DNA of 64,000 bases from Vicinamibacteria bacterium (GCA_023701125.1 JAMPXO010000007.1:1-64000), one strand, 5' to 3'. Counted from the stretch's first letter, positions 18,267-50,992 are shown. Numbers and translations: made by a program. Notes: a model not told the origin generated them from the letters alone.

Positions 18267-18515
18267 TTACGCGTGCAGCGAGTGGTACTTCTGCTCGAGC
18301 ATCTCGCGGCTCTCGGCGAGCGCCGCGTCCACGACGATGCAACCCTCGATCGGGCAGACCTCGATGCACTTCGGGTTGTCGTGGGCGCCCACGCACTCGG
18401 TGCAGCGCGCCGCATCGATCAGGAAAAGGGGGTCGCCGGCGGAAATCGCCTGGTTCGGGCACTCCGACTCGCAAGCGGCGCAGGCGATACAACCGTCGAT
18501 GATCTGCATGGCCAT
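18267..18515 (-). CDS. YfhL-type 2[4Fe-4S] ferredoxin
   Basis: An 82-residue ferredoxin with two cluster motifs: CIACAACESECP (CX2CX2CX3CP) and CTECVGAHDNPKCIEVCP, in which the second site has the longer CX2CX8CX3CP spacing typical of the YfhL/Alvin group. It carries single electrons in the cytoplasm. The ATG has GGAGGAAG upstream. A partner is not evident from context, as it is flanked by tRNA-Leu and the GH3 gene. Radical SAM enzymes in this genome need such reductants, but no link is shown here. Confidence 0.93.
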   Translation of the reverse strand: MAMQIIDGCIACAACESECPNQAISAGDPLFLIDAARCTECVGAHDNPKCIEVCPIEGCIVVDAALAESREMLEQKYHSLHA

Positions 18516-18669
18516 GGGGGGCTTCCTCCGTTATCAGTAGCCACGGAACCCAATAGCAAGCCCCCTGCCAGCCCCGGGCGGCGCAGCCGGTGCGCTTCAC
18601 GCGCGCCTTGCGCGCAACTGGGGGTGCGGGGGCGGAGGAGCGTCCGTTCGCGACGTAGCCCCCGCGGGA

Positions 18670-30575: not shown

Positions 30576-32396
30576 ATGGGCATGACCTCGATCCGCCCGG
30601 AAACCGAGACGCTGGAGGGACTGCGCGAGGCACTCGCCAAGCGCAGCCGCGAGCTCGACGTGCTGGCCGAGGTGGCCTCCCGGGTTCACGGACGCGAAGA
30701 CGTCCACCAGATCCTGGAGATCGCGCTCGACGAGATCCTCGCCCGCTTCGACCTGACCTCGGCCTGGATCTTCCTCGGCGACGACCGCGAGAAGCGGCTG
30801 CGGCTGGCCGCCCAGCGCGGCTGCTCGCGGGAGTGGCTCGACGAGGTGCGCGACCACGGCCTCCAGGAGTGCCTGTGCCCCGAGGTGTTCTGGACCGGGC
30901 ACCGCATGCAGGCGCGCAACACGCTGCAGTGCCCACGCATGCCCACGATCGTCGACGGGCTGCGCGAGCCCGTGGCCCACGCCTGCATCCCGCTCCGCTT
31001 CGAAGGCCCGACCCGCGGCGTGCTCAACGTCGCGGCGCGGCCGGGCCAGGTCTTCTCCGACGACGAGTTGCGCTTCCTGGAGACGCTCGGCCACCAGGTC
31101 TGCCTGGCGATCGAGCGCGCCGACCACCTGGCGGCGGAGCGCCGGCGTAACCAGGAAGCCCGCGCGATGGCCGCGATCAGCAAGGCGATCGGCGGCTCGC
31201 TCGATGCCAAGGACGTGCTGGCCGCAGTCGGCCGCACGGCCCGCGAGGTACTGCAGGCCGACCGCGTCCACGTCCTGCTCGGGGCCGGCGCCGAGCGGAT
31301 GACGGTCGCCTACGTCTCCGACCCGACCCTGCCCGGGCTGCGCGTCGGCGACAACCTCGACCTCTGCGCGCTGGAGGCCGCCCTGCACGTCAGCGTGCTG
31401 GAGAGCGGCGAACCGGCGGTGGTGGAGGACTGGTCGGCCGACGCTCGGGTCAATCCGAACCTGATGGAGACCTGGGCGGCCCGCTCCGGCATCCTGGTGC
31501 CGCTCTCCTCGCGCCGCGGCCTGCAGGGCGTGCTGGCGGTGACCTGCGAGACCCCGCGCCGGTTCGGCGAGGAGGAGGTCGAGTTGATCGAGGCGCTCGG
31601 CGCCCAGGCCTCGATCGCGCTGGAGAACGCCCGCCTGTTCGAGGAGACGCGGCGCGCGCTCGACGACCTGAAGAGCGCCCAGAACCGCATCATCCAGAAC
31701 GAGAAGATGGCGGTGCTCGGCACCTTCGCCTCGGGCCTCGCCCACGAGGTCCGCAACCCGCTCAACTCGATCGCGCTGCAGCTCTCGATCCTGGAGCGGC
31801 GCACGGCCCGACTCGAGGAGCCGCTGTCGAGCCAGGTCCGCGACCTGGTCGGCATCATCCGCGAGGAAATCCGCCGCCTCGACGGCCTGGTCGGCGACTT
31901 CCTGCTGCTGTCGCGCGCGAACCGCGTCCAGTACCGGCCGACGGAGATGGAGCCGCTGCTCGACGAGGTCGTGCGGCTGCTGCGCCCCGAGGCCCGCGAG
32001 GCGGGCATCACGATCCGCCGCCAGCGCATCGGCGAGCGACTCGGCAGCCTGGTCGTCGATGCCGAGAAGATCAAGCAGGTGGTGATCAACCTCGTGCGCA
32101 ACGCGCTCGAGGCGATCACCGAGTCGGGCATCGTGACCGTGGAGGACGGGCTGCTCGACGGCCGCGCCACGATCGTCGTCCGCGACACCGGGCCGGGACT
32201 GCCGGACGGCGTCGACATCTTCCAGTTGTTCGTGACGACCAAGGCCAAGGGCACGGGGCTCGGGCTGTCGATCGCCGAGCAGATCGTCACCGAGCACGGC
32301 GGCGAACTGCGCGCGGAGAACGACCCGGCGGGCGGTGCCCGCTTCACGATCAGCTTGCCCGCAGGCGCACCGCCTGTCGCGTCAGGGAGGCCCTGA
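30576..32396 (+). CDS. Double-GAF sensor histidine kinase (NtrB-like)
   Basis: A 606-residue soluble kinase with GAF1 (about residues 30-185), GAF2 (about 205-355), a short coiled coil, HisKA with GLAHEVRNPLNS (His390) and HATPase_c (NLVRNALEA, GTGLGLS). No membrane helix, so it senses a cytoplasmic signal. GAF1 has a cysteine cluster: Cys83, ECLC (Cys99, Cys101) and Cys119, which could bind metal, haem or an Fe-S centre or act as a redox switch; this is inference. The NtrC-like regulator follows after 3 nt, and multihaem cytochromes precede it. ATG 30582 is an alternative start. Likely controls sigma-54 transcription through that regulator. Confidence 0.92.
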   Translation: MGMTSIRPETETLEGLREALAKRSRELDVLAEVASRVHGREDVHQILEIALDEILARFDLTSAWIFLGDDREKRLRLAAQRGCSREWLDEVRDHGLQECLCPEVFWTGHRMQARNTLQCPRMPTIVDGLREPVAHACIPLRFEGPTRGVLNVAARPGQVFSDDELRFLETLGHQVCLAIERADHLAAERRRNQEARAMAAISKAIGGSLDAKDVLAAVGRTAREVLQADRVHVLLGAGAERMTVAYVSDPTLPGLRVGDNLDLCALEAALHVSVLESGEPAVVEDWSADARVNPNLMETWAARSGILVPLSSRRGLQGVLAVTCETPRRFGEEEVELIEALGAQASIALENARLFEETRRALDDLKSAQNRIIQNEKMAVLGTFASGLAHEVRNPLNSIALQLSILERRTARLEEPLSSQVRDLVGIIREEIRRLDGLVGDFLLLSRANRVQYRPTEMEPLLDEVVRLLRPEAREAGITIRRQRIGERLGSLVVDAEKIKQVVINLVRNALEAITESGIVTVEDGLLDGRATIVVRDTGPGLPDGVDIFQLFVTTKAKGTGLGLSIAEQIVTEHGGELRAENDPAGGARFTISLPAGAPPVASGRP

Positions 32397-32399
32397 GAC

Positions 32400-33944
<1,545 letters not shown>

Positions 33945-34817: not shown

Positions 34818-36143
34818 TCAGCGCGCTGTGGCGGGCACCGCCGCCACCGCCGCCGTCGTCGCGCTGGCGCTCGGAGCAGACCCGGCCGCGGGGTCGACGC
34901 CGAGCAGTCGCGCGGCCAGCAGGGCCTCGTCGGCGGCCCCGCCGCGGGCCGCGGCCTCGCGCAGGAAGGCCGTCGGCGGGTGCAGCAGCTTGTTGACGAT
35001 CGCCGCGGCCACGGCCTCGACAGCAGCCTCCTGTTCGGCCGTGAGGCCGGCGAGCCGGCGCCGCGCCTTGTGCAACTCGGACTGCTTGACCTCCTCCGCG
35101 CGGCGGCGGAGGGCCACCAGCACGGGCTGCACCTGCAGCGTGCGCTCCCAGGCGACGAAGGCCGCCACGGCCTCCTCGACCAGGGCGAACGCCTTCTGCG
35201 CCTCGCGCTCGCGCTCGCGCCGGTTGGCCGCCGCCACGGCCTGCAGGCCGTCGATGTCGTAGAGGAAGGTGCCGGGCAGCTTCGCGACATCGGCGTCGAT
35301 GTCGCGGGGAACGGCGATGTCGATCAGGAACAGCGGGCGGCCGCAACGCGCGGAGAGCGCCGCCTCGACGTCCTGGCGGCGCAGCACCACGCCCGGGGCA
35401 CCGGTGCCGCTGACCACGACGTCGGCCGTGCGCAGCAGCGACGGCAACGACTCGAGGGGAGCCGCCTCGGCGCCCAGTTCGGTCGCCAGTTCTTCGGCGC
35501 GCGCCAGAGTCCGGCCGCCGACCACGGTCGCGCGCGCCCCCGCCTGGACCAGGCGTTGCCCGGCCAGGGCGCACATCTTGCCGGCCCCGACGAGCACCAC
35601 CGAGCGCCCCGACAGGTCGCCGAAGATCTTCTTCGCGAGTTCGACCGCGACGTGCGAGACCGAGACGGCATGCTCGCCGATACCCGCTTCGCTGCGGGCC
35701 CGACGTGCAGCCTGGATGGCGCGATCGCGCAGGCCGCGCAGGGCCGGCCCGAGGGAACCCGCATCCTCGGCCAGCCGGAAGGCGTCCTTGAACTGGCCGA
35801 GGATCTGGGCCTCGCCCAGCACCATCGACTCGAGGCTGGCAGCGACGAGGAAGGCGTGGCGGACGGCGGCCTCGCCAGAGTGGCTGAACAGGTGGGCCTG
35901 CAGCGCGGCGGGCGTCTGCCCCATGCGCTCGGCCAGCAGCCGGCAGGCGGCGTCCAGGGCCCACGGGTCGCCCTCGCCGTAGATCTCGACCCGGTTGCAG
36001 GTGGAGAGCACCGCCGCCTCGCGCAGCCCACACTCGGCGCGCAGCCGGGCCAGCGCTGCGGGCAGCGACTCGGCGGTGAACGCCGCCGCCTCGCGCAGTG
36101 CCACGGGAGCCGTCTTGTAGCTGATTCCCACGACCAGGATCAC
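34818..36143 (-). CDS. hemA: Glutamyl-tRNA reductase, copy 1
   Basis: A 441-residue GluTR, which reduces Glu-tRNA to glutamate-1-semialdehyde, the first step of the C5 route to haem. Catalytic Cys49 is in STCNRVE; the NADPH domain has GAGKM; SGTGAPG and the dimerisation domain follow. The last 35 residues are an Ala/Ser-rich extension absent from copy 2. Start GTG 36143 has GGGAGGATTC upstream. It is on the strand of ccsBA (114 nt upstream) but has its own perfect sigma-54-like promoter. A second hemA lies at 48930-50174 in a conventional hemACD operon; this copy may be the conditional one. Confidence 0.96.
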   Translation of the reverse strand: MILVVGISYKTAPVALREAAAFTAESLPAALARLRAECGLREAAVLSTCNRVEIYGEGDPWALDAACRLLAERMGQTPAALQAHLFSHSGEAAVRHAFLVAASLESMVLGEAQILGQFKDAFRLAEDAGSLGPALRGLRDRAIQAARRARSEAGIGEHAVSVSHVAVELAKKIFGDLSGRSVVLVGAGKMCALAGQRLVQAGARATVVGGRTLARAEELATELGAEAAPLESLPSLLRTADVVVSGTGAPGVVLRRQDVEAALSARCGRPLFLIDIAVPRDIDADVAKLPGTFLYDIDGLQAVAAANRREREREAQKAFALVEEAVAAFVAWERTLQVQPVLVALRRRAEEVKQSELHKARRRLAGLTAEQEAAVEAVAAAIVNKLLHPPTAFLREAAARGGAADEALLAARLLGVDPAAGSAPSASATTAAVAAVPATAR

Positions 36144-36181: not shown

Positions 36182-36197
36182 TGCAACGCCGGTGCCA
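36182..36197 (-). promoter_or_regulatory. Perfect sigma-54 promoter consensus before hemA copy 1
   Basis: Minus-strand TGGCACCGGCGTTGCA matches TGGCAC-N5-TTGCA without a mismatch, with exact GG-N10-GC spacing. It lies 40 nt upstream of the GTG start, in the 114-bp gap after ccsBA. The expected transcript start (about 36171) leaves room for the GGAGG ribosome-binding site. Confidence 0.7.
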
Positions 36198-36257: not shown

Positions 36258-39200
36258 TCAGGCGCGAGTCGGAGCCGGGACCGCCTCGACCGCGGCCTGG
36301 GCGTGGTGGGAGCGCCAGCGGACGAGGGCCCCGACGATCACCGCCACCTCGAAGCCCACGAAGGCGACGATCCAGGTGTAGCCACCGGAGCCGAAGCCGT
36401 AGGAGTGCAGGCCGGTGCCGAGGATGTAGTTCACGCCGTACCACGCCATCAGCACCAGCAGGAAGCCGAGGATCGAGCCGACCGCCAGGCCGAAGTCCTT
36501 CAGCCAGCCGAGCAGCCGGCCGTGGAGGATCGCGAGATAGCCGAGGCAGGCGATCAGCGACCAGGTCTCCTTCGGGTCCCAGCCCCAGAAGCGGCCCCAC
36601 GAGTACGAGGCCCACACGCCGCCCAGCAGCGTTCCCGCGGCCAGGAACAGCGTCCCGACCTGCATCGCGCGCAGCAGGAACTTGGACAGCGTCTTGAGCG
36701 TCGCGACCCGACCGGGCGCGAAGAAGACGAGCCCCAGCGCGAGGTGGCCCAGCCCCATCGCGAGGAACAGCGAGGCGTAGCCCAGCATGATCGTGAGCAC
36801 GTGGGTGGTCAGCCAGAAGTTGTCGCGCAGCACGGGCACCAGCGGGTGGATCGCGCCGTCGAGGATCGGCGCCGTGTCGGCGAGGATCAGCGCCAGCACG
36901 CCGAGCCCCGAGGCCACGGTCGAGCTGACCCGCGAGCGCTGCAGCAGGTCGAAGACGAGAGCCAGCGCCACGGCGCCCCAGGCCACGAACACCACCGTCT
37001 CGTACATGTTGGTGAGCGGGGTCCGGCCCGAGATCACCGTGCGCAGCCACAGGCCCCAGCTCAGCGAGATCAGTCCCAGCACCAGCGCGCCCATGCCGAC
37101 CCGGCTCAGCGTCGGCGACGCCAGCGGGAAGCTCGACAGCAGCAGCAGGAAGCCGACGAGGTACAGCATCCAGGCGCTGCGGAACGGCTTGGCCCGGTTG
37201 TAGGTCAGCTCGCGCTCGATCGTCAGCGCCGTCGGGTAGGCGTTGGGGGCGCGGGCGGTCAGCAGCCGCGCGAGCTCGGCCGCGCGGGCGTCCGCCGCCG
37301 CCAGGTCACCGCTGCGGGCCGCCGCCTGGAGCGCCGCCACCACCGGCCGCAGGTCGCCGCCGGCGGCCGTGTCCAGGGCCATCACGTCGGCCACGCTCAG
37401 CCACTCGGCCTGCGGGTCGTTGCCGGGCGGCACGATCGTCAACGCTCGGCCGTCCATGATGGCCTGCAGCGTCGACAGCGTGCCCTCGAGGTCGAACACC
37501 TCCTGCTCCACCGGGTCGGGCCGCGAGCCCGGCTCGGCCTGCAGCCGCTCCTGGATGCGCTGGACCGCGGCGGCGAAAGGCGCATGGGCCGCGAGTTCGT
37601 CGAAGCTGAAACGGTCGCGGCCGGCGGGCAGCGCGATCGCCTCGCGCAGGCCCACGTGGGTGACGCGGATGATCGGCTTGGCGCGCCACTGCTCGGGCTG
37701 GCCGTGGAGCGAGAGCACCCACGCGGCCGGCTGCAGGCCCTCGAGGCTCTCGCCGCCGCCGAAGGGCTTGGCGCCGATCACCCGCCGTGCCGTCTCGCGG
37801 GCGAAGGTGTCGAGCGGCTTCAGCCGGCCGGCGTCCTGGATGGCCAGCGAGGCCAGCCCGTCGCCGGGCTCGGCGGCGAGCATCGGCAGCGACGCCAGGC
37901 ACGACGCCGCGGCCAGCAGCACGACGGGCAGCGAGGGGCGCAGATCGCTGCGGCCGATGGCGCGAGCCGGACGGGCGGTCGCCAGCTTGTGGGCGGCCAG
38001 GGCCTGGGCCGCGGTCCGCCGCACGAGCCACGGCTTGATCAGGTACATGAACACGATGCCGAGGGTCATGAAGACGGTGCCCGCGTAGACGAGCGGCAGG
38101 CCCGGGGCGCGGGCGACCGACAGGATCGAGGTCATCGGCTGGCCCTCGATGAACGAGGACTGGAAGAACGTGTAGCCGCGGTAGTGCAGCGGGCGGTTCA
38201 TCGACACGAGGTGCTCGGAGCTGCCGAGCTCGGGGTCGTCGATGCGAACCCGGCTCTCGTAGGTGGCCGCCATCCGCGAGCCCGGGTACTTCTCCGACTT
38301 GAAGTCGAGCAGCGTGACCTGGAACGGCAGCGAAAGCTGCGGGGCCGCGAAGGCCATCTGCGCCTCACCGTTCTCCAGCGAGAAGGCCTGCGGCTCGCCC
38401 CACACCAGCCAGAACGACGGCGAACGCCCCGTGGGACCCTCAAGATGGGCCTTCAGCGCGGGCGTGCGGTCCTCGATCTTGACGGGCGGCTTCGCCTCCG
38501 CCACGTCGCGGCGCTGCTGCGCCTTTTCGAGCGCACGCAGGACCGTGAACTTCAGGCCCATCCACGGGGTCGCGACCTCGGTCCCCGGCTCCAGCACCGC
38601 GACCTTGCCGTCGGCGCCCGCGCCCGACAGGGCGTACATCAAGCGCCCACCGGGCAGCATGGCGAAACCAATCCGGCTCTGCGAGGCGTCGCCGCGCAGG
38701 ACCTCGCGCGCCGCCTTCTCGTCGGCCGCCGCGACCAGCTCGAGCGAGAGCGGTCCGATCGAGGCCTGGGCGTGGCCGTGCCCGTCGTCCATCAGCCACT
38801 CTTCCATGTGACCGAACGAGCCGTGGAGGGCCAGCCGCAGCGCCGGACCGCCCTGCCCCTCGGCCACGCCCTCGACGATCTCGACGTGCTTCGCGAGGCT
38901 CTCCACGACCACGGCGACGTCGGTGCCCGCGGTGGTGAAGCGGGCGGTGCCGTCGGCAATGGCGGCCTCGTCGATCTCGCCGGTCAGCGCGACAGGACCG
39001 TTGGCTCCCGGCAGCAGCGCATGCAGCCCGCGGCCCACGGAGGTGACGCGGTTGGAGCTCGTCCCCTCCTCGAGCTGGAGCGAGGCGTCGAGGCCGAGGC
39101 GCAGCGACACCAGCGACCCGACCAGCAGCAGCACGATGCCGATGTGGGCAGCGACGAAGCCGCCGTGGAAGCGGTTCCAGGGGTACTTGGCCATCATCGC

Positions 39201-39413
39201 GAGGAAGACGTTGACGCCCAGCACCGCCATCAATCCCGCGAACCAGGGCGTCGCGTAGATGGCCTCCTGGACGGCCGCTGTGCCGCGCTTCATCTCGTAG
39301 AAGGTGCCGACGCTGCAGATCACGGCCAGCAGCACCATCAGGGCCACGCCCAGCCGCGTGGACGCCAGGCCCTCGGTCAGCCGCTTCAGGATCGCGCCCG
39401 GTTTCGTCGTCAT
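36258..39413 (-). CDS. ccsBA: CcsBA (ResB-CcsA fusion) cytochrome c synthase
   Basis: A 1,051-residue fused System II cytochrome c synthase, which exports haem and attaches it to CXXCH proteins. The ResB/CcsB part (about residues 1-480) has helices near 17-35, 55-75, 85-105 and 455-475 around a large periplasmic domain. The CcsA part has multiple helices, the WWD haem-handling motif as WGRFWGWDPKETWS near residue 940, and flanking His in LTTHVLTIMLGY and GLHSYGFG. Fusions of this kind are known from epsilonproteobacteria and Bacteroidetes. ATG 39413 has GAGGAGGAAAG upstream. The neighbouring hemA1 and cytochromes fit a haem-loading role. Confidence 0.94.
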   Translation of the reverse strand: MTTKPGAILKRLTEGLASTRLGVALMVLLAVICSVGTFYEMKRGTAAVQEAIYATPWFAGLMAVLGVNVFLAMMAKYPWNRFHGGFVAAHIGIVLLLVGSLVSLRLGLDASLQLEEGTSSNRVTSVGRGLHALLPGANGPVALTGEIDEAAIADGTARFTTAGTDVAVVVESLAKHVEIVEGVAEGQGGPALRLALHGSFGHMEEWLMDDGHGHAQASIGPLSLELVAAADEKAAREVLRGDASQSRIGFAMLPGGRLMYALSGAGADGKVAVLEPGTEVATPWMGLKFTVLRALEKAQQRRDVAEAKPPVKIEDRTPALKAHLEGPTGRSPSFWLVWGEPQAFSLENGEAQMAFAAPQLSLPFQVTLLDFKSEKYPGSRMAATYESRVRIDDPELGSSEHLVSMNRPLHYRGYTFFQSSFIEGQPMTSILSVARAPGLPLVYAGTVFMTLGIVFMYLIKPWLVRRTAAQALAAHKLATARPARAIGRSDLRPSLPVVLLAAASCLASLPMLAAEPGDGLASLAIQDAGRLKPLDTFARETARRVIGAKPFGGGESLEGLQPAAWVLSLHGQPEQWRAKPIIRVTHVGLREAIALPAGRDRFSFDELAAHAPFAAAVQRIQERLQAEPGSRPDPVEQEVFDLEGTLSTLQAIMDGRALTIVPPGNDPQAEWLSVADVMALDTAAGGDLRPVVAALQAAARSGDLAAADARAAELARLLTARAPNAYPTALTIERELTYNRAKPFRSAWMLYLVGFLLLLSSFPLASPTLSRVGMGALVLGLISLSWGLWLRTVISGRTPLTNMYETVVFVAWGAVALALVFDLLQRSRVSSTVASGLGVLALILADTAPILDGAIHPLVPVLRDNFWLTTHVLTIMLGYASLFLAMGLGHLALGLVFFAPGRVATLKTLSKFLLRAMQVGTLFLAAGTLLGGVWASYSWGRFWGWDPKETWSLIACLGYLAILHGRLLGWLKDFGLAVGSILGFLLVLMAWYGVNYILGTGLHSYGFGSGGYTWIVAFVGFEVAVIVGALVRWRSHHAQAAVEAVPAPTRA

Positions 39414-39440
39414 CTTTCCTCCTCGACTGCGCCGGCTTAC

Positions 39441-39456
39441 TTCAAGCCCCGTGCCT
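39441..39456 (-). promoter_or_regulatory. Sigma-54-like motif before ccsBA (non-canonical -12)
   Basis: Minus-strand AGGCACGGGGCTTGAA has the GGCACG -24 core but GA instead of GC at -12. It is 29 nt from the ccsBA ATG. It fits the pattern but lacks the key -12 C. Confidence 0.25.
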
Positions 39457-39533
39457 GCGGGGATCGATCCGGTATTTCCCGAATTGCGCAAGATTGGCGT
39501 CGCGACGGGCCAGCCGGAAGGCAATCCCTGCGC

Positions 39534-41833: not shown

Positions 41834-42157
41834 TCAGCCGCGGCGCTCGATAGGCTGGATCAGCGCGCGGCGCCCGAGCAGGTCCTGCAACGCGTCGAAG
41901 CGCATCAGCGGATCGCGGATCGCGGCCACCCGGAAGCGGAGCGGGCGCGAGCGGAGCAGCCACTCGAGCTGGGGTAGCGCAGCCTGGGTGCGCCGCAGCA
42001 TGTCGAGCAGCCGGTTGCGGACGTTGTCGGACGCCTCCGCCCACACGTCGACGGCCACACCTTCGTGGTCATCGAGCAACACGATCAGCCCGGGTCCATC
42101 GAACGCGACCGCCGCGACGGCCTCGTCCAGCACCTGATCGGCGCCCCACTCGATCAT
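41834..42157 (-). CDS. Small hypothetical protein beside radical SAM gene
   Basis: A 107-residue cytoplasmic protein I do not recognise. It has an N-terminal alpha/beta stretch (VAFDGPGLIVLLDDHEGVAVDVW) and a basic, Leu/Arg-rich second half with no cysteines. ATG 42157 has GAGGGGGGACC directly upstream, a good start. It is divergent from the CX10CX2C radical SAM gene, 158 bp away, and may be its partner or unrelated. Confidence 0.65.
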   Translation of the reverse strand: MIEWGADQVLDEAVAAVAFDGPGLIVLLDDHEGVAVDVWAEASDNVRNRLLDMLRRTQAALPQLEWLLRSRPLRFRVAAIRDPLMRFDALQDLLGRRALIQPIERRG

Positions 42158-42276
42158 GGTCCCCCCTCGATCCGACAAGCCCACGGCCGCCCGGACGCAC
42201 GTCGTGCGCCGCCTGGGGCGAATGCGACGCCGCCTTCTTCAAGCTTCCAATCGACATGCCACGTCTGGACGCTGGT

Positions 42277-42292
42277 CGGCACGCTCCTTGCT
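42277..42292 (+). promoter_or_regulatory. Sigma-54-like promoter candidate before radical SAM gene
   Basis: CGGCACGCTCCTTGCT matches TGGCACG-N4-TTGCT with a single mismatch (first base) and GG-N10-GC spacing. It lies 25 nt before the ATG at 42316, with GTGGAG between. Confidence 0.6.
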
Positions 42293-42315
42293 GGTCCGGG
42301 GGCGTGGAGATTCCC

Positions 42316-43572
42316 ATGTTCGACTGGACCAACCCGGCGTTACTCAAGCTCGACCTCTTCTGCAAGGGGCTGCGGGTCGACGACTCGTGCCTCGTGGAAG
42401 AGGACGGCGGCCGCAAGATCCTGCGCACCCGGGCGGGGCTCGGCTCCGGCCTGGAGCTGGTGCTGCCGGGCGGGCTCTGGACGAACGCCCCTGTAGCCGA
42501 GCGTTTCGCCGCCAACTCCCCGTGGCTGATCCGCCGCAGCGAGAAGCGCTACTGGCTCGAGCGCGACGGCGTCGCCCCGATCGAGGTCCAGCTCTCGCCG
42601 CGGCCGGCCTGGTACGACCGCAAGACGACCAGCGGCAAGGTGATGACGCGGGTCGGCACGCTGCAGGGCACGTACCTCGGCGTCTACCCCGCCAAGGTGT
42701 GCGAGTACTGGCTCGAAGACGAGAAGAGCAACTGCAAGTTCTGTTCGGTCGGCCTCAACCTCGGCCTCGACGACGACGTCGAGAAGTCGGTCGAAGAGGT
42801 GATGGAGGTGGCGCGGGCGGCCCGTCGCGAGTCCGGCATCACCTACGTCGACTTCAACACCGGCCACTACGAGGGCGAGACCTACCTCGACATCCTGGAG
42901 CCCTACATCCGCCGCATCAAGGACGAGCTGGGACTGCTGGTCGGCGTGCAGACCCCGCCCCACTCCGACCTGCGCCGCTACGACCGGTTGCGGAAGATGG
43001 GCGTCAACCGCGTCTCGTTCTGCTTCGAGATCTTCGACCCGGTCCGCTTCCGGGAGGTGTGCCCGGGCAAGCACCGCGCGTACGGCCTCGAGCGCTACCT
43101 CGACGCGGTGAAGTACTGCGCCTCGCTCGGCAAGCAGGGCCCGGCCCACGAGCCGTGGGTGACCAACGGCGAGATCATCGCGGGCCTGGAATCGCCGGAG
43201 TCGTCGATCAAGGCGATCGACTGGATCACCTCGGTGGGCGCGATCCCGACGGTGTGCGTGTTCCGGCCGCTGTCGGGCACCGACTACTCGAACGTCGAGC
43301 CGCCGAAGACCGAGGACATGGTGCCGGTCTTCAAGCGCCTCTACGAGGCCTGCATGGAGCGCGGGCTGCCGATCGGCTGCGCGCCCAACGTCCACGTCAG
43401 CCTGGTGCTGCTGCCCGAGGAGGGCCGCTACCTGTCGGACCGCAGCTTCCCGTGGACGACGGTCAAGAACAAGGTGCTGGCGACGGGCCTGAAGATGAGC
43501 CTCAACCGCAAGTGGAAGAAGCTCGAGGCCCGCGCGCCGCAGGCTGCTGCGCAGCCGGTGGCCGCGCAGTAG
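42316..43572 (+). CDS. Radical SAM protein with CX10CX2C cluster motif
   Basis: A 418-residue radical SAM-type protein. An N-terminal domain of about 110 residues, not recognised, precedes the barrel. The cluster-binding cysteines appear to be Cys129, Cys140 and Cys143 (VCEYWLEDEKSNCKFCSVG), a CX10CX2C spacing instead of the usual CX3CX2C. Barrel strands follow: YVDFNTGHYEGETYL, GLLVGVQTPPHSD and VNRVSFCFEIFDP. The last 60 residues end in an Ala/Gln-rich tail. Its start is ATG 42316. It converges with a ferritin-like and SPASM radical SAM pair. Substrate unknown. Confidence 0.8.
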   Translation: MFDWTNPALLKLDLFCKGLRVDDSCLVEEDGGRKILRTRAGLGSGLELVLPGGLWTNAPVAERFAANSPWLIRRSEKRYWLERDGVAPIEVQLSPRPAWYDRKTTSGKVMTRVGTLQGTYLGVYPAKVCEYWLEDEKSNCKFCSVGLNLGLDDDVEKSVEEVMEVARAARRESGITYVDFNTGHYEGETYLDILEPYIRRIKDELGLLVGVQTPPHSDLRRYDRLRKMGVNRVSFCFEIFDPVRFREVCPGKHRAYGLERYLDAVKYCASLGKQGPAHEPWVTNGEIIAGLESPESSIKAIDWITSVGAIPTVCVFRPLSGTDYSNVEPPKTEDMVPVFKRLYEACMERGLPIGCAPNVHVSLVLLPEEGRYLSDRSFPWTTVKNKVLATGLKMSLNRKWKKLEARAPQAAAQPVAAQ

Positions 43573-43582
43573 CGCTTCGTCG

Positions 43583-44254
43583 TCAGCAGCCGGGGACCGT
43601 CTCCACCAGCATCCGGCCCGCCGCGAGCGACCGGAGTTCGTCCGCCAGTGACAGTGTTGTCAGGATCGCCTGGCGGGCGATCGCCTGGGCGTGGGGCTCC
43701 TGCGCCAGCTCGGCGAGCAGGTTCTGGCCCCACTCGTGGTGGCGCTTCTCGTCGGGCTGGATCTCCTCGCGATAGAGCCGCGCCGTGGCGCGATCGCCGG
43801 CCTCCTCGCAGAAGGCGATGAACAGCTCGTTGGCCTTGTAGCCCACCGCCTCGCGGGTGAACTGCGCCGCCGCCACCCGCTCGACCGTCGTGCCCAGCCC
43901 CGACAGGTAGCGGAACAGCTTCGACGGCGCCTCGCGCACGCCGGCGATGCCGCCCAGCTCGTGCAGACGGCGCTCGATCAGCGTGTAGTGGCGGGCCTCG
44001 TCACCGCACTGGCGGGCGAAGGCGATCCGCGCTTCCAGCTCGGGCGTCACCGGCACCCACAGCGCGGCGATCTCGGACGCCTCCAGCTCCGCCCGCAGCG
44101 CGCCGCGCAGCAACTGCTTCATGTCGGCGCGCTGGACTGCCTCCTTGAGATGGGCCATCGCCGCGTCGCGCACGTCGAGCAGTTGCCACACGGTGGCCGT
44201 CATCTCGGCGACGAACTCGGTCCCCGAGCAGGTCCGGGGCACGCCGCGGCTCAC
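43583..44254 (-). CDS. Ferritin-like di-iron protein next to radical SAM genes
   Basis: A 223-residue, mostly helical protein with ferritin-like metal ligands: ELEASEIAALW (Glu), DEARHYTLIE (ExxH), FCEEAGDRAT (Glu) and PDEKRHHEWG (ExxH). This suggests a di-iron four-helix bundle of the rubrerythrin/oxidase type. GTG 44254 overlaps the stop of the upstream SPASM gene (GTGA) and has GGAG 8 nt before it; ATG 44203 would give 206 residues. Tight coupling suggests the two act in one pathway. Function unknown. Confidence 0.75.
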   Translation of the reverse strand: MSRGVPRTCSGTEFVAEMTATVWQLLDVRDAAMAHLKEAVQRADMKQLLRGALRAELEASEIAALWVPVTPELEARIAFARQCGDEARHYTLIERRLHELGGIAGVREAPSKLFRYLSGLGTTVERVAAAQFTREAVGYKANELFIAFCEEAGDRATARLYREEIQPDEKRHHEWGQNLLAELAQEPHAQAIARQAILTTLSLADELRSLAAGRMLVETVPGC

Positions 44255-45396
44255 GCGGTCATCTCCGCGACGGCCGGCCGCGCCCCGACCTGCGGCTCGT
44301 AGGAGCACCACGGGTCGGTCTCGAACGGGTCGCCCGTCAGCCCGTAGGCACGCGAGCGGGAGCCGCCGCAGATGCGGGCGAACTCGCACCGGCCGCAGCG
44401 GCCGCGCAGGGCGGACGGGTCGCGCAGGGCCTTGAACAGCGCGCTGTTGCGGTAGGCGTCGGCGATGCCGCGGGTGCGCAGGTTGCCGGCCGTGAGCGGC
44501 AGGAAGCCGCTCGGGTAGATGTCGCCCGTGTGCGAGACGAACAGGAAGCCGTTGCCGGAGTTGACGCCGCGCGGGGCGAGGCCGACGGTGTGGCCGGGGC
44601 CCTCGGAGGTCGTCAACATGCCGGGCATCGCCACCTCGCCGTGGGGCCGGCCGCCACGGTGGCCGCCCTCCACCATCTCGCGCTGCGCGACGTGGCGGCG
44701 GTAGTGCGGGGCCTCGGTCACCTTGACGATGAAGTTGCTCTTCTTCTGCACTTTGTAGATCACGTCGAACAGCCGCTCGCACTGCGAGGCCGACAGGCCC
44801 GCCATCATGCTGCCGCGGCCGGTCGGCACCAGGAAGAAGACCTCCCAGAACACGATGCCGAGGGTCTCGACGAAGGCCGCCATCTCCTCGAAGTAGGGCG
44901 CGGTCTCGCCGCACACCGTGGTGTTGATCTGCAGCGGCAGGCCGATCTCGCGCGCCCACGAGGCGCCCTCGAGGGTGCGCTCGAACGAGCCGGGCACGCC
45001 GCGGAAGCCGTCGTGCAGCTCCGCCCGCGGGAAGTCGAGCGAAAGCGCCATCTGGTCGAGGCCCGCGTCCTTCAGCTGCCGCACGAGCGCGGGGCTCAGC
45101 CACTCGGTGGCGGCGGGGATCGTCGCGGTCCGCAGGTTGCGCTGCTTGCCGTGCTGGATCAGGTCGAGCAGGTCGGGCCGGTTGACGGGGTCGCCGCCGG
45201 TGAAGATCAGCAGCGGCGTGCCCATGTCGGCGACCTGGTCGATCAGGCTGAAGCCCTCGGCGGTGGTCAGTTCGCCGGGGTCGCGCCACGGGCGCGCCGA
45301 AGCACGGCAGTGACGGCAGGCCAGGCCGCACGCCTGGGTGGTCTCCCAGATCACGAGGAAGGGGGACTGGTCGAAATCCACGACGGGCATCGGCAT
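44251..45396 (-). CDS. Radical SAM/SPASM protein (AhbD/NirJ-like group)
   Basis: A 381-residue protein with a canonical radical SAM motif CGLACRHC (CX3CX2C) near residue 24, FTGGDPVNRPDL, and a C-terminal SPASM-like region with cysteines in CGRCEFARICGG and a last Cys in DPWC for auxiliary clusters. It resembles the haem-modifying and peptide-modifying SPASM enzymes (AhbD, NirJ, TIGR04053-like). I cannot choose between these from sequence. ATG 45396 has AAGGAGG 8 nt upstream. It is coupled to a ferritin-like gene. Haem synthesis genes lie 2 kb away, making a tetrapyrrole substrate one possibility. Confidence 0.85.
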   Translation of the reverse strand: MPMPVVDFDQSPFLVIWETTQACGLACRHCRASARPWRDPGELTTAEGFSLIDQVADMGTPLLIFTGGDPVNRPDLLDLIQHGKQRNLRTATIPAATEWLSPALVRQLKDAGLDQMALSLDFPRAELHDGFRGVPGSFERTLEGASWAREIGLPLQINTTVCGETAPYFEEMAAFVETLGIVFWEVFFLVPTGRGSMMAGLSASQCERLFDVIYKVQKKSNFIVKVTEAPHYRRHVAQREMVEGGHRGGRPHGEVAMPGMLTTSEGPGHTVGLAPRGVNSGNGFLFVSHTGDIYPSGFLPLTAGNLRTRGIADAYRNSALFKALRDPSALRGRCGRCEFARICGGSRSRAYGLTGDPFETDPWCSYEPQVGARPAVAEMTA

Positions 45397-45425
45397 CGGT
45401 GCGGCCTCCTTGCCCCTTGGCGGAC

Positions 45426-45441
45426 TGCAAGCCCGGTGCCC
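45426..45441 (-). promoter_or_regulatory. Sigma-54-like promoter candidate before SPASM radical SAM gene
   Basis: Minus-strand GGGCACCGGGCTTGCA matches TGGCAC-N5-TTGCA with one mismatch (first base) and exact GG-N10-GC. It is 31 nt from the ATG at 45396. Confidence 0.6.
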
Positions 45442-47281: not shown

Positions 47282-48034
47282 CTAGCTCCTACTTGCCCAG
47301 GCGGTGATCGCCGCCAGCAGGCCTTCGTTGGTCGAGGGCTGCGCCACCGCGACGACGGACAGGCTCGCCGCTCGCGCGGCGGATGCCGTGACCGGGCCAA
47401 TCACCGCCACGGGCACGATCTGCGCCGCGACGCCGGCGACCTCGATCCACGCCTGCACCGCCGAGGGTGAAGCGAGCACGACCAGGTCCGCGCTCGCGCC
47501 GGCCCCGGCGCCCGGCGCCGTCACGGTGCGATAGGCGACGACGGCCGTGACCTCGGCGCCGGCCACGCGCAGGCCGGCTGCCAGCACCGGCCGGGCGCGG
47601 TCCGACAGCGGCAAAAAGAAGCGCCGGCCCGCCACGCCGGTGGCGACCAGCTCGGCGAGCAGGCCCTCGGCGTGGAACGCGTCGGCGGGCGGCTGCACGA
47701 GCGGCACGCCCGGGAACGTGGACCGGGCCGCGGCCGCCGTGGCACTGCCGACCGCGGCCAGCGCCCGGGGCGCTGCTGCCAGCCGAAGGGCGGCGCAGCG
47801 GTCCGCGACGGCGGCCACCGCGTTGGCACTGCCGAACACCACGCTGTCGAACGTCGCCAGCGCCCGCAGCGCCAGGTCGAGCGGCGCGATGTCCGCCGGC
47901 GGGGCGATCTCGATCAGCGCGCCCGCTTCCACGCGCGCGCCGAGGGCCTCGAGGGCCGCCACCAGCGGCGCCGCCTGCGCCGCTGGCCGCGTGACGCGGA
48001 CGCGCAGCCCGCTCAGCGGCCCCGCCCCGGTCAC
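47282..48034 (-). CDS. hemD: Uroporphyrinogen-III synthase
   Basis: A 250-residue HemD, which cyclises hydroxymethylbilane to uroporphyrinogen III. It is poorly conserved as usual, with VRVTRPAAQAAPLVAALEALGA at the start, VVFGSANAVAA, and the late VLASPSAVQAWIEV and IGPVTASAARAA. GTG 48034 overlaps the hemC stop (GTGA). Fourth and last gene of the hemX/ccsA-hemA-hemC-hemD operon. Confidence 0.9.
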   Translation of the reverse strand: MTGAGPLSGLRVRVTRPAAQAAPLVAALEALGARVEAGALIEIAPPADIAPLDLALRALATFDSVVFGSANAVAAVADRCAALRLAAAPRALAAVGSATAAAARSTFPGVPLVQPPADAFHAEGLLAELVATGVAGRRFFLPLSDRARPVLAAGLRVAGAEVTAVVAYRTVTAPGAGAGASADLVVLASPSAVQAWIEVAGVAAQIVPVAVIGPVTASAARAASLSVVAVAQPSTNEGLLAAITAWASRS

Positions 48035-48933
48035 CGCCCCAGCAGCTCCGAGGCGCCCTGCGCCAGCAGCTCCTCGGCCAGGCCGCGGCCGAGCGCGGCG
48101 GCGTCCTCACCCCTGCGCTCGCCGCGCAGGAAGCGGGAACCGTCCTCGCGGGCCACGAACGCGCGCAACCACAGCTCGCCCTGGCCTTGTGCGAACGCAC
48201 CGAGCGGCACGTTGCAGCCGCCGCCGAGCGCGGAGAGGAACTCCCGCTCCGCCGTGATGGCAGCGTGGGTGGCCGGGTGGTGCAGGACGGCGACCGCGGC
48301 CGCCGTCTCGGGATCGTCCTGGCGGCACTCGATCGTGATCGCGCCCTGACCCGGCGCGGGCAGCAACAACTCCGCCGCGAGCGGTTCGGTGACCTCGGCC
48401 AGCAGGCCGAGCCGGGTCAGCCCCGCCATCGCCAGCAGGATCGCGTCGTACTCGCCCTCGCGCAGCTTGCGGATGCGGGTGTCGACGTTGCCGCGCAGGT
48501 CGGAGATCGCCAGGTCGGTCCGCAGCGCCCGAAGCTGGGCCTGTCGCCGCAGGCTGGTGGTGCCCACCTTCGCGCCGTGCGGCAGGTCGGCGAACGCGAC
48601 CCGGTCGCGGGAGAGGAACGCGTCGCGCGGGTCAGCGCGCTCGAGCGTCGCCACCAGGTGCAGGCCCGCGGGCAGCTCGGTCGGCACGTCCTTCAGCGAG
48701 TGGACCGCGAGGTCGACCTCGCGCGCCAGCAGCGCCTCCTCGATCTCCTTCAGGAACGCGCCCTTGCCGCCCACGGCCTGAAGCCGGCGGTCGAGCACGC
48801 GGTCGCCGGTGGTGGTGATGACCTGGATGCGCGTCTCGTGCCCGGCGGCCGCCAGCCGCGCCTTGACGTGCTCCGCCTGCCACAACGCGAGGGCGCTGCC
48901 CCGCGAACCGATCACCAGCGGGCGCGCGCTCAC
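48031..48933 (-). CDS. hemC: Porphobilinogen deaminase
   Basis: A 300-residue HemC that assembles four porphobilinogens into hydroxymethylbilane. Features are IGSRGSALALWQAE, AVHSLKDVPTELPAGL, GTTSLRRQAQL, and the cofactor-binding Cys in GGGCNVPLGAF. The start is GTG 48933, overlapping the hemA stop (GTGA). Confidence 0.97.
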   Translation of the reverse strand: MSARPLVIGSRGSALALWQAEHVKARLAAAGHETRIQVITTTGDRVLDRRLQAVGGKGAFLKEIEEALLAREVDLAVHSLKDVPTELPAGLHLVATLERADPRDAFLSRDRVAFADLPHGAKVGTTSLRRQAQLRALRTDLAISDLRGNVDTRIRKLREGEYDAILLAMAGLTRLGLLAEVTEPLAAELLLPAPGQGAITIECRQDDPETAAAVAVLHHPATHAAITAEREFLSALGGGCNVPLGAFAQGQGELWLRAFVAREDGSRFLRGERRGEDAAALGRGLAEELLAQGASELLGR

Positions 48934-50174
48934 AGGCCCAGCATCCGGCGGATCAAACTCATCACGTCCCCCCGGCCGTCGCGTGCGGCCTCCTTGAGCT
49001 GCACGGTCGGCGTGTGCAGCAGCTTGTTGACGATCGCCGCCGTGGCGGCCTCCAGCGCCTGTTCCTGCTCCGCGGTCAGCGTGCCCAGTCGCCGCCGCGC
49101 CTTCTCGATCTCGCCGCGGCGGATCTCCTCGCCGCGGCGCCGCAGCTCGGCGAGCAGCGGCGCCACCTCGCGCGAGCGCAGCCAGTCGAGGTACTCGCGC
49201 ACCTCGTGCTCGACGACCTGCTCCGCCTGCACGGCCTCCTTGCGCCGCTCGCGCAGGTTGGCCTCGGACACGGCCTTGATGTCGTCGAGATCGTAGAGGA
49301 AAACGCCGGGCACCTCGCGCACGTCGGCGTCGACATCACGGGGCACGGCGATGTCGACCAGGAACAGCGGGCGCCCGCCGCGGGCCTGGCGCGCCACGGC
49401 GACGTCCGCGCGCGAGATCACGGTGCCCGGAGCGCCGGTGCCGCTGATCACGATGTCGGCTCGCGACAGCTCGTCGCGCAGGTGCTCGAACGGCGCGGCG
49501 CGGCCGCCCAGCGCGCGCGCGAGCTGCTCGGCCTTCTCGAAGGTGCGGCCGCCCAGCACGGTGGCCGTGGCGCCCGCGGCGACCAGTTGGCGCGCCGCCA
49601 GCGCGCTCATCTTGCCGGCGCCGACCAGCAGCACGGCGCGGCCCTCGAGGTCGCGGAAGATCTTCAGCGCCAGCTCGACGGCCACGGACGACACCGACAC
49701 CGCGTTGCGGCCGATGCCGGTCTCGCTGCGCGCGCGCTTGGCGGCGGCGAACGTGCGGTGGCGCAGCGTGGCCAAGGCAGAGCCCAGCGTGCCGGCCGAC
49801 TCGGCCAGCTCGTAGGCCTCTTTCACCTGGCCCAGGATCTGGGCCTCGCCCACGACCATCGAGTCGAGGCTGGCCGCGACCCGGAAGGCGTGACGCACGG
49901 CGTCCTCGCCGGCCAGGCGATAGGCGTGCGGCTCGAGTTCCCCGGGCGCACGGCCGTGGTGGGCGGCGAGGAACGCGGCGATCGGCGCGGGGTCGGCGAG
50001 GCCGCCCGCGTAGACCTCCACCCGGTTGCAGGTGGAGAGGATCATCGCCTCTTCGGCGCCGGCCTCCTCGCGCACGCGGGCGAGCGCCTGCGGCAGCGTC
50101 TCGCGCGGGAACGCGAGGGCTTCCCGCAACGCGAGAGTGGACGTCCTGTGGCTGACCCCGACGACGACGATCAT
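48930..50174 (-). CDS. hemA: Glutamyl-tRNA reductase, copy 2 (operon copy)
   Basis: A 414-residue GluTR with catalytic Cys49 in STCNRVE, GEAQILGQVKEAYE, GAGKM and SGTGAPG. It lies in the classic order hemX/ccsA-hemA-hemC-hemD with 4-nt overlaps on both sides, so it is probably the housekeeping copy. It is clearly homologous to copy 1 at 34818-36143 along the whole length but lacks that protein's C-terminal extension. Confidence 0.97.
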   Translation of the reverse strand: MIVVVGVSHRTSTLALREALAFPRETLPQALARVREEAGAEEAMILSTCNRVEVYAGGLADPAPIAAFLAAHHGRAPGELEPHAYRLAGEDAVRHAFRVAASLDSMVVGEAQILGQVKEAYELAESAGTLGSALATLRHRTFAAAKRARSETGIGRNAVSVSSVAVELALKIFRDLEGRAVLLVGAGKMSALAARQLVAAGATATVLGGRTFEKAEQLARALGGRAAPFEHLRDELSRADIVISGTGAPGTVISRADVAVARQARGGRPLFLVDIAVPRDVDADVREVPGVFLYDLDDIKAVSEANLRERRKEAVQAEQVVEHEVREYLDWLRSREVAPLLAELRRRGEEIRRGEIEKARRRLGTLTAEQEQALEAATAAIVNKLLHTPTVQLKEAARDGRGDVMSLIRRMLGL

Positions 50175-50992
50175 CGGGCGGCGGCGGCTCCGACGGGGCT
50201 GGCGAGGACGGTCACCCAGAGGAAGGTGAGGGCCACGGCAGCGAAGCCGGCGATGCCGAGCCACGCCCCGCGCCGCCCGCCCCAGCCGCTGCGATGGCGC
50301 GCCACGAGCATCGCCAGGTAGATCAGCCAGGCCACCACCGCGGTCCACTCCTTCGCGTCCCCCGTCCAGTAGTGGCCACGGGCGGCGGCACTCCAGAACA
50401 TCCCGGTCACGATCGCGAGCGTCAGCAGCGGGAAGCCGACCGCGGCGGCGCGCCCGCCCGTGCGATCGCAGCCCTCGAGGCTGGGGATCAGGTAGTAGAA
50501 CGTGTGCGGGCTGCGCGAGCGGAGCTCGCGCTCCTGGATCAGGTACAGCACGCCCATCGCGAAGGCGACGAACAGCGCGGAGTAGCCGAGGAAGGCCAGC
50601 GTCGCGTGAACCGGCAGGAACAGCGACTGCAGGTACGGGTCCGCCTTGTCCTCGGGCCGCGAGAGGTTGGCGACCACCAGCAGCAGGAACGCCGTGGGGT
50701 GGACGGCGAGGCCGAGCACGTCCTCCCGCGAACGCATCCACATCACGAGGAACACGAGCACGAGCGTCCAGGCCAGGAAGGAGGAGATGTCGCGCAGGCC
50801 GACGGCCGGGAAGCGGCCAGCCTCGTTCCAGCGCAGCGCCAGCGCCGCGGTGTGGGTGGCGAAGCCCAGCAGCATGGCCGTGGTGGTGGTCAGCGACAGC
50901 AGCTTGCGCCGCGTCGCCGCGTGCAACAGCACGTGGACGGCGCCGCCCGTGTAGAAGAGCAGGGTGAGGAGGAGGTAGACGCGCGAGCCCAC
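50171..50992 (-). CDS. HemX/CcsA-like cytochrome c assembly membrane protein
   Basis: A 273-residue membrane protein with about eight helices and the CcsA/HemX signature: GHYWTGDAKEWTAVVAW (a Trp-rich loop), THTAAL and LPVHATLAFLGY (His). It is first in the haem operon, as HemX often is. HemX proteins are thought to regulate HemA amount, while CcsA handles haem. Which applies here cannot be told from sequence, and the genome has a separate fused CcsBA. The start is GTG 50992, without a clear ribosome-binding site. Stop overlaps the hemA ATG. Confidence 0.88.
   Translation of the reverse strand: MGSRVYLLLTLLFYTGGAVHVLLHAATRRKLLSLTTTTAMLLGFATHTAALALRWNEAGRFPAVGLRDISSFLAWTLVLVFLVMWMRSREDVLGLAVHPTAFLLLVVANLSRPEDKADPYLQSLFLPVHATLAFLGYSALFVAFAMGVLYLIQERELRSRSPHTFYYLIPSLEGCDRTGGRAAAVGFPLLTLAIVTGMFWSAAARGHYWTGDAKEWTAVVAWLIYLAMLVARHRSGWGGRRGAWLGIAGFAAVALTFLWVTVLASPVGAAAAR

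What the first reader, a model, noticed from the sequence alone, without database searches (positions are those of the whole stretch)
41834..45441. Unexplained radical SAM / ferritin-like / SPASM locus
A CX10CX2C radical SAM gene faces a tightly overlapping SPASM radical SAM and ferritin-like pair; both transcription units have single-mismatch sigma-54-like promoters. A small unknown gene is divergent. SPASM enzymes modify peptides or tetrapyrroles, ferritin-like di-iron proteins can be oxidases or oxygenases, and haem genes lie 2 kb away. The combination suggests a biosynthetic or modifying pathway used under the same conditions as the cytochromes. I do not know a described system with this set.
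Basis: partly seen in the sequence, partly recalled or inferred. Interest (0 to 1): 0.7.

Follow-up and report, generated by a model that had tools for sequence, protein, structure and literature searches.

The report
Oxygen-independent haem-making enzyme locus
The locus of this acidobacterium most likely carries an oxygen-independent last enzyme of haem synthesis (an AhbD-type radical SAM protein) used for nitrogen-oxide respiration, next to a second, uncharacterised radical SAM enzyme that keeps turning up beside haem genes; it matters because the oxygen-free version of this step has been reported as unknown in bacteria that use the coproporphyrin route.

Summary
The genes are real and conserved in sister genomes (Acidobacteriota, Vicinamibacteria). 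The SPASM protein is not an unexplained peptide modifier. It belongs to TIGR04053 (448 bits, cut-off 395) and has the cysteine/Glu/Ser pattern of non-methanogen AhbD haem synthases. Its haloarchaeal relative sits in the same place as H. volcanii ahbD (HVO_2144), which is needed only for anaerobic growth and rescued by haem. In 193 genomes of the class TIGR04053 goes with ChdC (35 of 40) and NO reductase (19 of 32), and never with HemN (0 of 30). It lies in gene strings with hemA, with ResB/CcsA plus CgoX, and with Crp/Fnr, NnrS and RIC. I read it as the O2-independent coproheme decarboxylase of a coproporphyrin-dependent pathway (not biochemically shown). The CX10CX2C radical SAM protein is a separate, widespread family (NF045502), next to TIGR04053 in four arrangements and next to CtaB or CgoX in others; its substrate is unknown. 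The ferritin-like protein has a complete di-iron site but accompanies the others only in this genus. Sigma-54-like sites: one mismatch (rSAM1), two (SPASM); both conserved; hemA and a ferredoxin-like gene nearby have one-mismatch sites.

The parts
44251..45396 (-). TIGR04053-type (AhbD-like) radical SAM/SPASM protein, 381 aa
   Evidence: TIGR04053 448 bits vs cut-off 395, next best AhbD TIGR04545 315 bits; 97% identical in sister genomes; dN/dS 0.07
45307..45330 (-). radical SAM cluster motif CX3CX2C (CGLACRHC)
   Evidence: invariant in alignment A5
44305..44397 (-). C-terminal auxiliary cluster motif CX2CX5CX20C; elsewhere in the protein the other (AuxI) cluster sites are Glu/Ser (E228, S296, S346)
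   Evidence: invariant in A5; same pattern as non-methanogen AhbD in PMC10452713
43583..44254 (-). ferritin-like di-iron protein, 223 aa, start codon overlaps the stop of the SPASM gene by 4 bp
   Evidence: ligands E56, E86, H89, E135, E169, H172 invariant in A2; weak DUF455; AF2 helix bundle, pLDDT 86
42304..43572 (+). variant radical SAM protein (NF045502 family), start 42304 GTG or 42316 ATG
   Evidence: NF045502 201 bits vs cut-off 125; 202 relatives in genome contigs
42700..42744 (+). CX10CX2C cluster motif (CEYWLEDEKSNCKFC)
   Evidence: three cysteines invariant in A1
41834..42154 (-). small protein of unknown family, found only in this genus, no cysteine
   Evidence: no Pfam/NCBIfam match; dN/dS 0.15
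42277..42292 (+). sigma-54-like site, one mismatch, upstream of the variant radical SAM gene
45426..45441 (-). sigma-54-like site, two mismatches, upstream of the SPASM gene
36182..36197 (-). sigma-54-like site, one mismatch, upstream of the first hemA; a matching site is present in both sister genomes
34818..36143 (-). hemA (glutamyl-tRNA reductase), first of two copies in the window
   Evidence: GlutR domains
36258..39524 (-). ResB/CcsA cytochrome c maturation fusion protein (true start inside this frame)
   Evidence: Pfam; homologue in a gene string with TIGR04053 and CgoX in L039
47282..48034 (-). hemD-like gene (uroporphyrinogen III synthase; assigned by reading and position)
   Evidence: reading of the translation and synteny
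48031..48933 (-). hemC-like gene (assigned by reading and position)
   Evidence: reading of the translation and synteny
48930..50741 (-). frame holding the second hemA (C-terminal part of the frame)
   Evidence: GlutR domains
30576..33944 (+). GAF histidine kinase and NtrC-type sigma-54 activator, candidate regulators
   Evidence: Pfam

Best explanation
The locus serves oxygen-independent haem supply in a bacterium that makes haem by the coproporphyrin-dependent (CPD) route. The SPASM protein is an AhbD-type haem synthase: with a low-potential electron donor it cleaves SAM, abstracts hydrogen from two propionates of coproheme and decarboxylates them to vinyl groups, giving haem b without O2 or H2O2, in place of ChdC when the cell respires nitrogen oxides. 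The CX10CX2C protein is a second radical SAM enzyme used in the same anaerobic haem/cytochrome programme; its reaction is not known. The ferritin-like protein is a di-iron helper added in this genus (perhaps removing O2 or peroxide, or handling iron). Shown: families, motifs, conservation, genomic associations. Inferred: substrate, electron source, regulation, role of the other two proteins.
For: TIGR04053 membership and the invariant non-methanogen-AhbD Cys/Glu/Ser pattern (PMC10452713). The H. larsenii TIGR04053 gene (501 bits) lies beside halocyanin, norB-type and DUF2249 genes, the place of HVO_2144 ahbD, whose deletion impairs only anaerobic growth and is rescued by haem (PMC5746218). H. 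volcanii rings in the family control at E<=1e-90. Own genome has ChdC, CpfC and CgoX but no HemN, HemF or AhbC hit: a CPD genome. In 193 genomes TIGR04053 vs ChdC 35 of 40 (P 1e-5), vs HemN 0 (6.2 expected, P 9e-4), vs NorB 19 (6.6 expected, P 1e-7; by genus P 0.001). G006 and G008 have TIGR04053, CpfC and CgoX but no ChdC, HemN or HemF hit. Gene strings: TIGR04053-ResB/CcsA-CgoX (L039); hemA-TIGR04053 (L254); NnrS-like-TIGR04053-Crp/Fnr-RIC (L246, L248, L251); beside a nitrite reductase gene in Thermus. For the second enzyme: near TIGR04053 in the window, L033/L034, L126 and L224, next to haem O synthase in L104/L106, in a gene string with CgoX in L128.
Against: No biochemistry for any bacterial TIGR04053 protein was found. 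The window protein is below the NCBI AhbD cut-off (315 vs 500 bits), as is the H. larsenii one (343). Statistics are not corrected for phylogeny; by genus the HemN avoidance is P 0.09. More than half of the ChdC hits are short, weak matches. Some genomes carry two TIGR04053 copies (G001, G002, G004), so paralogues may differ in function. The second enzyme also occurs in genomes where neither ChdC nor HemN was found and beside PQQ-type dehydrogenases or prenyltransferases.
Confidence: 0.68

Rival explanations
1. The SPASM protein makes or trims a different tetrapyrrole needed for nitrogen-oxide respiration (haem d1-like or otherwise modified), in the manner of NirJ, not haem b.
For: NirJ-type families score next after AhbD; Thermus carries the gene beside a nitrite reductase gene.
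Against: AhbD scores far above all NirJ families; a haloarchaeal copy sits beside copper NirK, which needs no haem d1; found with ChdC-type and never HemN-type genomes; linked to hemA and CgoX.
Confidence: 0.15
2. The three proteins form one modification pathway for a peptide or small molecule (RiPP-like or cofactor).
For: SPASM domain; 4-bp overlap of SPASM and ferritin-like genes kept in the sister genomes.
Against: No precursor gene seen; the SPASM protein belongs to the haem-synthase branch, not to maturase families; the ferritin-like gene is not beside TIGR04053 outside the genus and stands alone in G007 and G012.
Confidence: 0.07
3. The CX10CX2C enzyme has nothing to do with haem: it acts in isoprenoid, quinone or another anaerobic metabolism and is near haem genes only through a shared regulon. 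(This rival concerns that gene alone and is compatible with the best explanation of the SPASM gene.)
For: UbiA-type prenyltransferase and polyprenyl synthase neighbours in Omnitrophota, Planctomycetota and others; PQQ-type dehydrogenase neighbours; present in genomes without ChdC or HemN hits.
Against: Repeated adjacency to TIGR04053, CtaB, CgoX, GluTR-dimer-like proteins and multihaem cytochromes.
Confidence: 0.45

Closest known systems
AhbD haem synthase, non-methanogen archaeal type (HVO_2144 of Haloferax volcanii)
   Same: radical SAM CX3CX2C, C-terminal CX2CX5CX20C with Glu/Ser in place of AuxI cysteines, relatives placed among denitrification genes
   Different: here in a bacterium with CPD-route genes (ChdC, CgoX, CpfC) and without AhbC; below the NCBI AhbD cut-off; activity untested
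NCBIfam TIGR04053
   Same: full-length match above cut-off
   Different: the family name carries no function; no paper in the held library names it
ChdC (HemQ) coproheme decarboxylase
   Same: proposed same reaction, coproheme to haem b
   Different: unrelated protein, needs H2O2 (PMC10965808); the genome has both
NF045502 variant_rSAM and MSMEG_0568 family
   Same: the CX10CX2C protein matches NF045502 above cut-off
   Different: MSMEG_0568 match far below its cut-off (95 vs 304 bits), about 27% identity to such proteins on plasmids
DUF455 and phenol-hydroxylase-like ferritin-like proteins
   Same: E, EXXH, E, EXXH di-iron site, helix bundle
   Different: only a weak DUF455 match; Foldseek finds no PDB match below E 1e-3

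Membership tests
TIGR04053 | NCBI curated score cut-off 395 bits over the full length | tested here: met
   448 bits, profile 1-366
AhbD haem b synthase (TIGR04545) | NCBI curated score cut-off 500 bits | tested here: not met
   315 bits; the H. larsenii protein at the place of H. volcanii AhbD also fails it (343)
AhbD haem b synthase (TIGR04545) | CX3CX2C plus CX2CX5CX20-38C, Glu/Ser at AuxI sites in non-methanogens (PMC10452713) | tested here: met
AhbD haem b synthase (TIGR04545) | decarboxylates coproheme to haem b with SAM | not testable with these tools
   needs purified enzyme; indirect support from PMC5746218 for the haloarchaeal counterpart
Siroheme-dependent (Ahb) haem route | AhbC in the genome | tested here: not met
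   no match at 1e-60 in the own genome
Coproporphyrin-dependent haem route | ChdC, CpfC and CgoX present, HemN and HemF absent | tested here: met
   genome 95% complete
NF045502 variant radical SAM | NCBI cut-off 125 bits | tested here: met
   201 bits
MSMEG_0568 family | NCBI cut-off 303.7 bits | tested here: not met
   95.5 bits
SPASM peptide (RiPP) maturases | adjacent precursor peptide gene | tested here: inconclusive
   no convincing candidate among ORFs of 50 aa or more; shorter ones were not listed
Iron-storage ferritin | Pfam Ferritin score over cut-off | tested here: not met
   17.9 vs 24.5 bits; best PDB sequence match bacterioferritin at E 0.003
Di-iron ferritin-like superfamily | four carboxylates and two histidines as E, EXXH, E, EXXH | tested here: met
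   A2 invariant columns
Sigma-54 promoters | GG at -24 and GC at -12, conserved among relatives, at a transcription start | tested here: inconclusive
   conserved upstream of both genes and of hemA; transcription start not mapped

The most novel reading that the evidence does not exclude
The CX10CX2C proteins are a new family of haem-biosynthetic or haem-modifying radical SAM enzymes that, with an AhbD-type decarboxylase, give coproporphyrin-route bacteria an oxygen-independent way to haem (for example the anaerobic oxidation of coproporphyrinogen III, or a side-chain change of haem).
Probability: 0.25. Interest if true: 0.8.

Novelty: new variant of a known kind. Interest (0 to 1): 0.55.

Why it matters
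[quoted passage not shown] a 2025 review (PMC12670364) names AhbD as the anaerobic enzyme for that step. TIGR04053 in ChdC-type bacterial genomes, tied to denitrification genes and in gene strings with CgoX and hemA, is a concrete, testable candidate, and cultivable organisms that carry it (Thermus thermophilus strains, haloarchaea) are at hand. The variant radical SAM family beside it is a widespread family without known function, now with a haem lead.

Tried and rejected
Peptide-modification reading: dropped (family, no precursor seen). Three-gene system: dropped, the ferritin-like gene is not linked outside the genus. Haem d1 reading: kept only as a rival. Siroheme (Ahb) route in this genome: rejected, no AhbC. 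Fold searches gave nothing specific: the ferritin-like model resembles bacterioferritin, TenA, UndA and phenol hydroxylase, none below E 1e-3; the variant radical SAM model resembles PylB, PFL-AE, MqnE, BioB and others. A plasmid search with the ferritin-like protein found only two distant DUF455-type proteins. A literature search for TIGR04053 found nothing. Two family scans failed first for a wrong frame. Sigma-54-like sites outside the genus: TIGR04053 upstream regions mostly lack them, some variant radical SAM ones have them; background is 7% at two mismatches or fewer, so they were not used as evidence beyond the genus.

Full report
What is there. The window belongs to an Acidobacteriota genome of the class Vicinamibacteria group: its closest relatives are the MAGs ACD1 and ACD2, 90-91% identical over the CX10CX2C protein. 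Four genes lie in 41834-45396: a small divergent gene, a variant radical SAM gene, and a convergent pair in which the ferritin-like start overlaps the SPASM stop by 4 bp. The block and its neighbours (HI0933-like flavoprotein, TonB-like, Usp, hemDC) are collinear in the sisters. The SPASM (97% identity) and ferritin-like (94%) proteins are conserved better than their neighbours; dN/dS is 0.07 and 0.09, 0.18 for the variant radical SAM gene and 0.15 for the small gene.

SPASM protein. It scores 448 bits to TIGR04053 (cut-off 395); the next family is AhbD haem b synthase (315), then NirJ families and AhbC; peptide maturases are far behind. Alignment with haloarchaeal, Thermus, Deinococcus and acidobacterial members shows invariant CX3CX2C, CX2CX5CX20C, and Glu228, Ser296, Ser346. 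A 2023 study of AhbD (PMC10452713) describes this pattern for AhbD of non-methanogenic archaea: four C-terminal cysteines, with Glu and Ser at three of the four sites of the other cluster. The matching of those sites to E228, S296 and S346 is mine, by motif position. The H. larsenii member (501 bits) is flanked by DUF2249, halocyanin and NorB-type genes; in H. volcanii ahbD is HVO_2144, near nirK HVO_2141, a blue copper protein HVO_2145 and norB HVO_2147, and its deletion impairs growth by denitrification or DMSO respiration but not aerobic growth, with rescue by protohaem (PMC5746218). H. volcanii also rings in the TIGR04053 control search. That HVO_2144 is the TIGR04053 member is my inference from synteny and this control.

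Genomic association. Across 193 genomes of the class: TIGR04053 in 40 (E<=1e-90, 30 over the cut-off), ChdC in 111, HemN in 30, NO reductase in 32. Overlaps: with ChdC 35 (23 expected, P 1e-5), with HemN 0 (6.2 expected, P 9e-4), with NorB 19 (6.6 expected, P 1e-7). By genus: HemN 2 against 5.1 expected (P 0.09), NorB 13 against 6.5 (P 0.001). The two shared genera (g54, g100) split: one genome has HemN, another has TIGR04053. More than half of the ChdC hits are short, weak matches, so the ChdC number is softer than it looks. The own genome has a full-length ChdC, CpfC/HemH and CgoX/HemY, and no HemN, HemF or AhbC hit. G006 and G008 have TIGR04053, CpfC and CgoX but no ChdC, HemN or HemF hit; both are draft genomes.

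Gene strings. L039 (G004): TIGR04053, ResB/CcsA fusion, CgoX with touching or overlapping ends. L254 (G172): hemA followed by TIGR04053 after a few bases. L246, L248, L251: NnrS-like, TIGR04053, Crp/Fnr, RIC; L035: TIGR04053, Crp/Fnr, qNor, RIC; L047: TIGR04053 with a PFOR-like gene, a possible source of low-potential electrons. Of 33 loci examined, 17 have such nitrogen-oxide markers within four ORFs; no background rate was measured. In Thermus the gene lies between a nitrite reductase gene and a cytochrome c gene, with an oxidase-type (NorB-like) subunit gene nearby; in Halobellus it lies near nirK.

Variant radical SAM protein. NF045502 (201 bits, cut-off 125). Thirty-nine of 193 class genomes have it, in two clades of about 70% and 46% identity to the window, and there are 202 places in genome contigs in many phyla. 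Its three cysteines, an RTRAGLGSGLE stretch and LQGTYL are invariant. Neighbours: TIGR04053 directly adjacent and co-oriented with a Crp/Fnr gene (L033, L034), divergent (L126), downstream (L224), convergent with one gene between (window); haem O synthase TIGR01473 in L104/L106; a string of Rrf2 gene, small proteins, GluTR-dimer-like protein and CgoX in L128; multihaem cytochromes and PFOR in the distant clade; RIC, NnrS-like, nitrate reductase and NarK genes in others. Presence together with TIGR04053 is above chance by genome (18 vs 8.1, P 8e-5) but weak by genus (P 0.06). Elsewhere it sits beside UbiA-type prenyltransferases or PQQ-type dehydrogenases. A haem role is the best lead, not a demonstration.

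Ferritin-like protein. Six ligand residues of an E, EXXH, E, EXXH site are invariant down to distant relatives; the AF2 model is a helix bundle (pLDDT 86) with no clear PDB match. Its nearest relatives outside the genus (62% and 45%) stand alone, one of them (G007) in a HemN genome without TIGR04053. The overlap with the SPASM gene suggests coupled translation, in this genus only.

Regulation. One-mismatch sigma-54-like sites also lie about 40 bp upstream of the first hemA (matching sites in both sisters) and of a ferredoxin-like gene (18267-18515; assigned by reading, no Pfam match); a GAF histidine kinase and NtrC-type activator lie at 30576-33944. There are four sites with at most one mismatch in the window against 0.5 expected. 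This fits, but does not prove, a sigma-54 regulon for anaerobic haem supply.

Verdict. The SPASM gene is a bacterial AhbD-type haem synthase candidate in a coproporphyrin-route genome, for a step whose oxygen-independent enzyme was called unknown in 2024 (PMC10965808) and for which AhbD is named as the anaerobic option in a 2025 review (PMC12670364).

Noticed in passing
34818-36143 and 48930-50741 (-): Two hemA genes in one window, the first with a one-mismatch sigma-54-like site upstream that has a match in both sister genomes.
   Followed up: partly
18267-18515 (-), site 18555-18570 (-): Small ferredoxin-like gene (by reading) with a one-mismatch sigma-54-like site about 40 bp upstream; a possible electron donor for the radical SAM enzymes.
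   Followed up: no
L120:5877-6143, L251:3617-3958, L128:5254-5685: Small stand-alone proteins resembling the dimerisation domain of glutamyl-tRNA reductase, repeatedly near the variant radical SAM or TIGR04053 genes.
   Followed up: partly
L117:8525-8773, L035:9224-9493: A conserved 80-90 aa protein without Pfam match directly after the variant radical SAM gene in the distant clade, and a relative of it near TIGR04053.
   Followed up: no
L033, L034, L044, L049: Some genomes carry a second TIGR04053 copy, or a more AhbD-like one (L049: 457 bits to TIGR04545, 359 to TIGR04053).
   Followed up: partly
L230, L226, L236: Variant radical SAM gene near UbiA-type prenyltransferases (L230: nearest models chlorophyll synthase and other prenyltransferases, all below cut-off).
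   Followed up: no
NZ_CP029056.1 (plasmids collection, hit H30): A 2.9 kb Campylobacter jejuni record carries a TIGR04053 gene; possibly a contaminant or misassembly.
   Followed up: no
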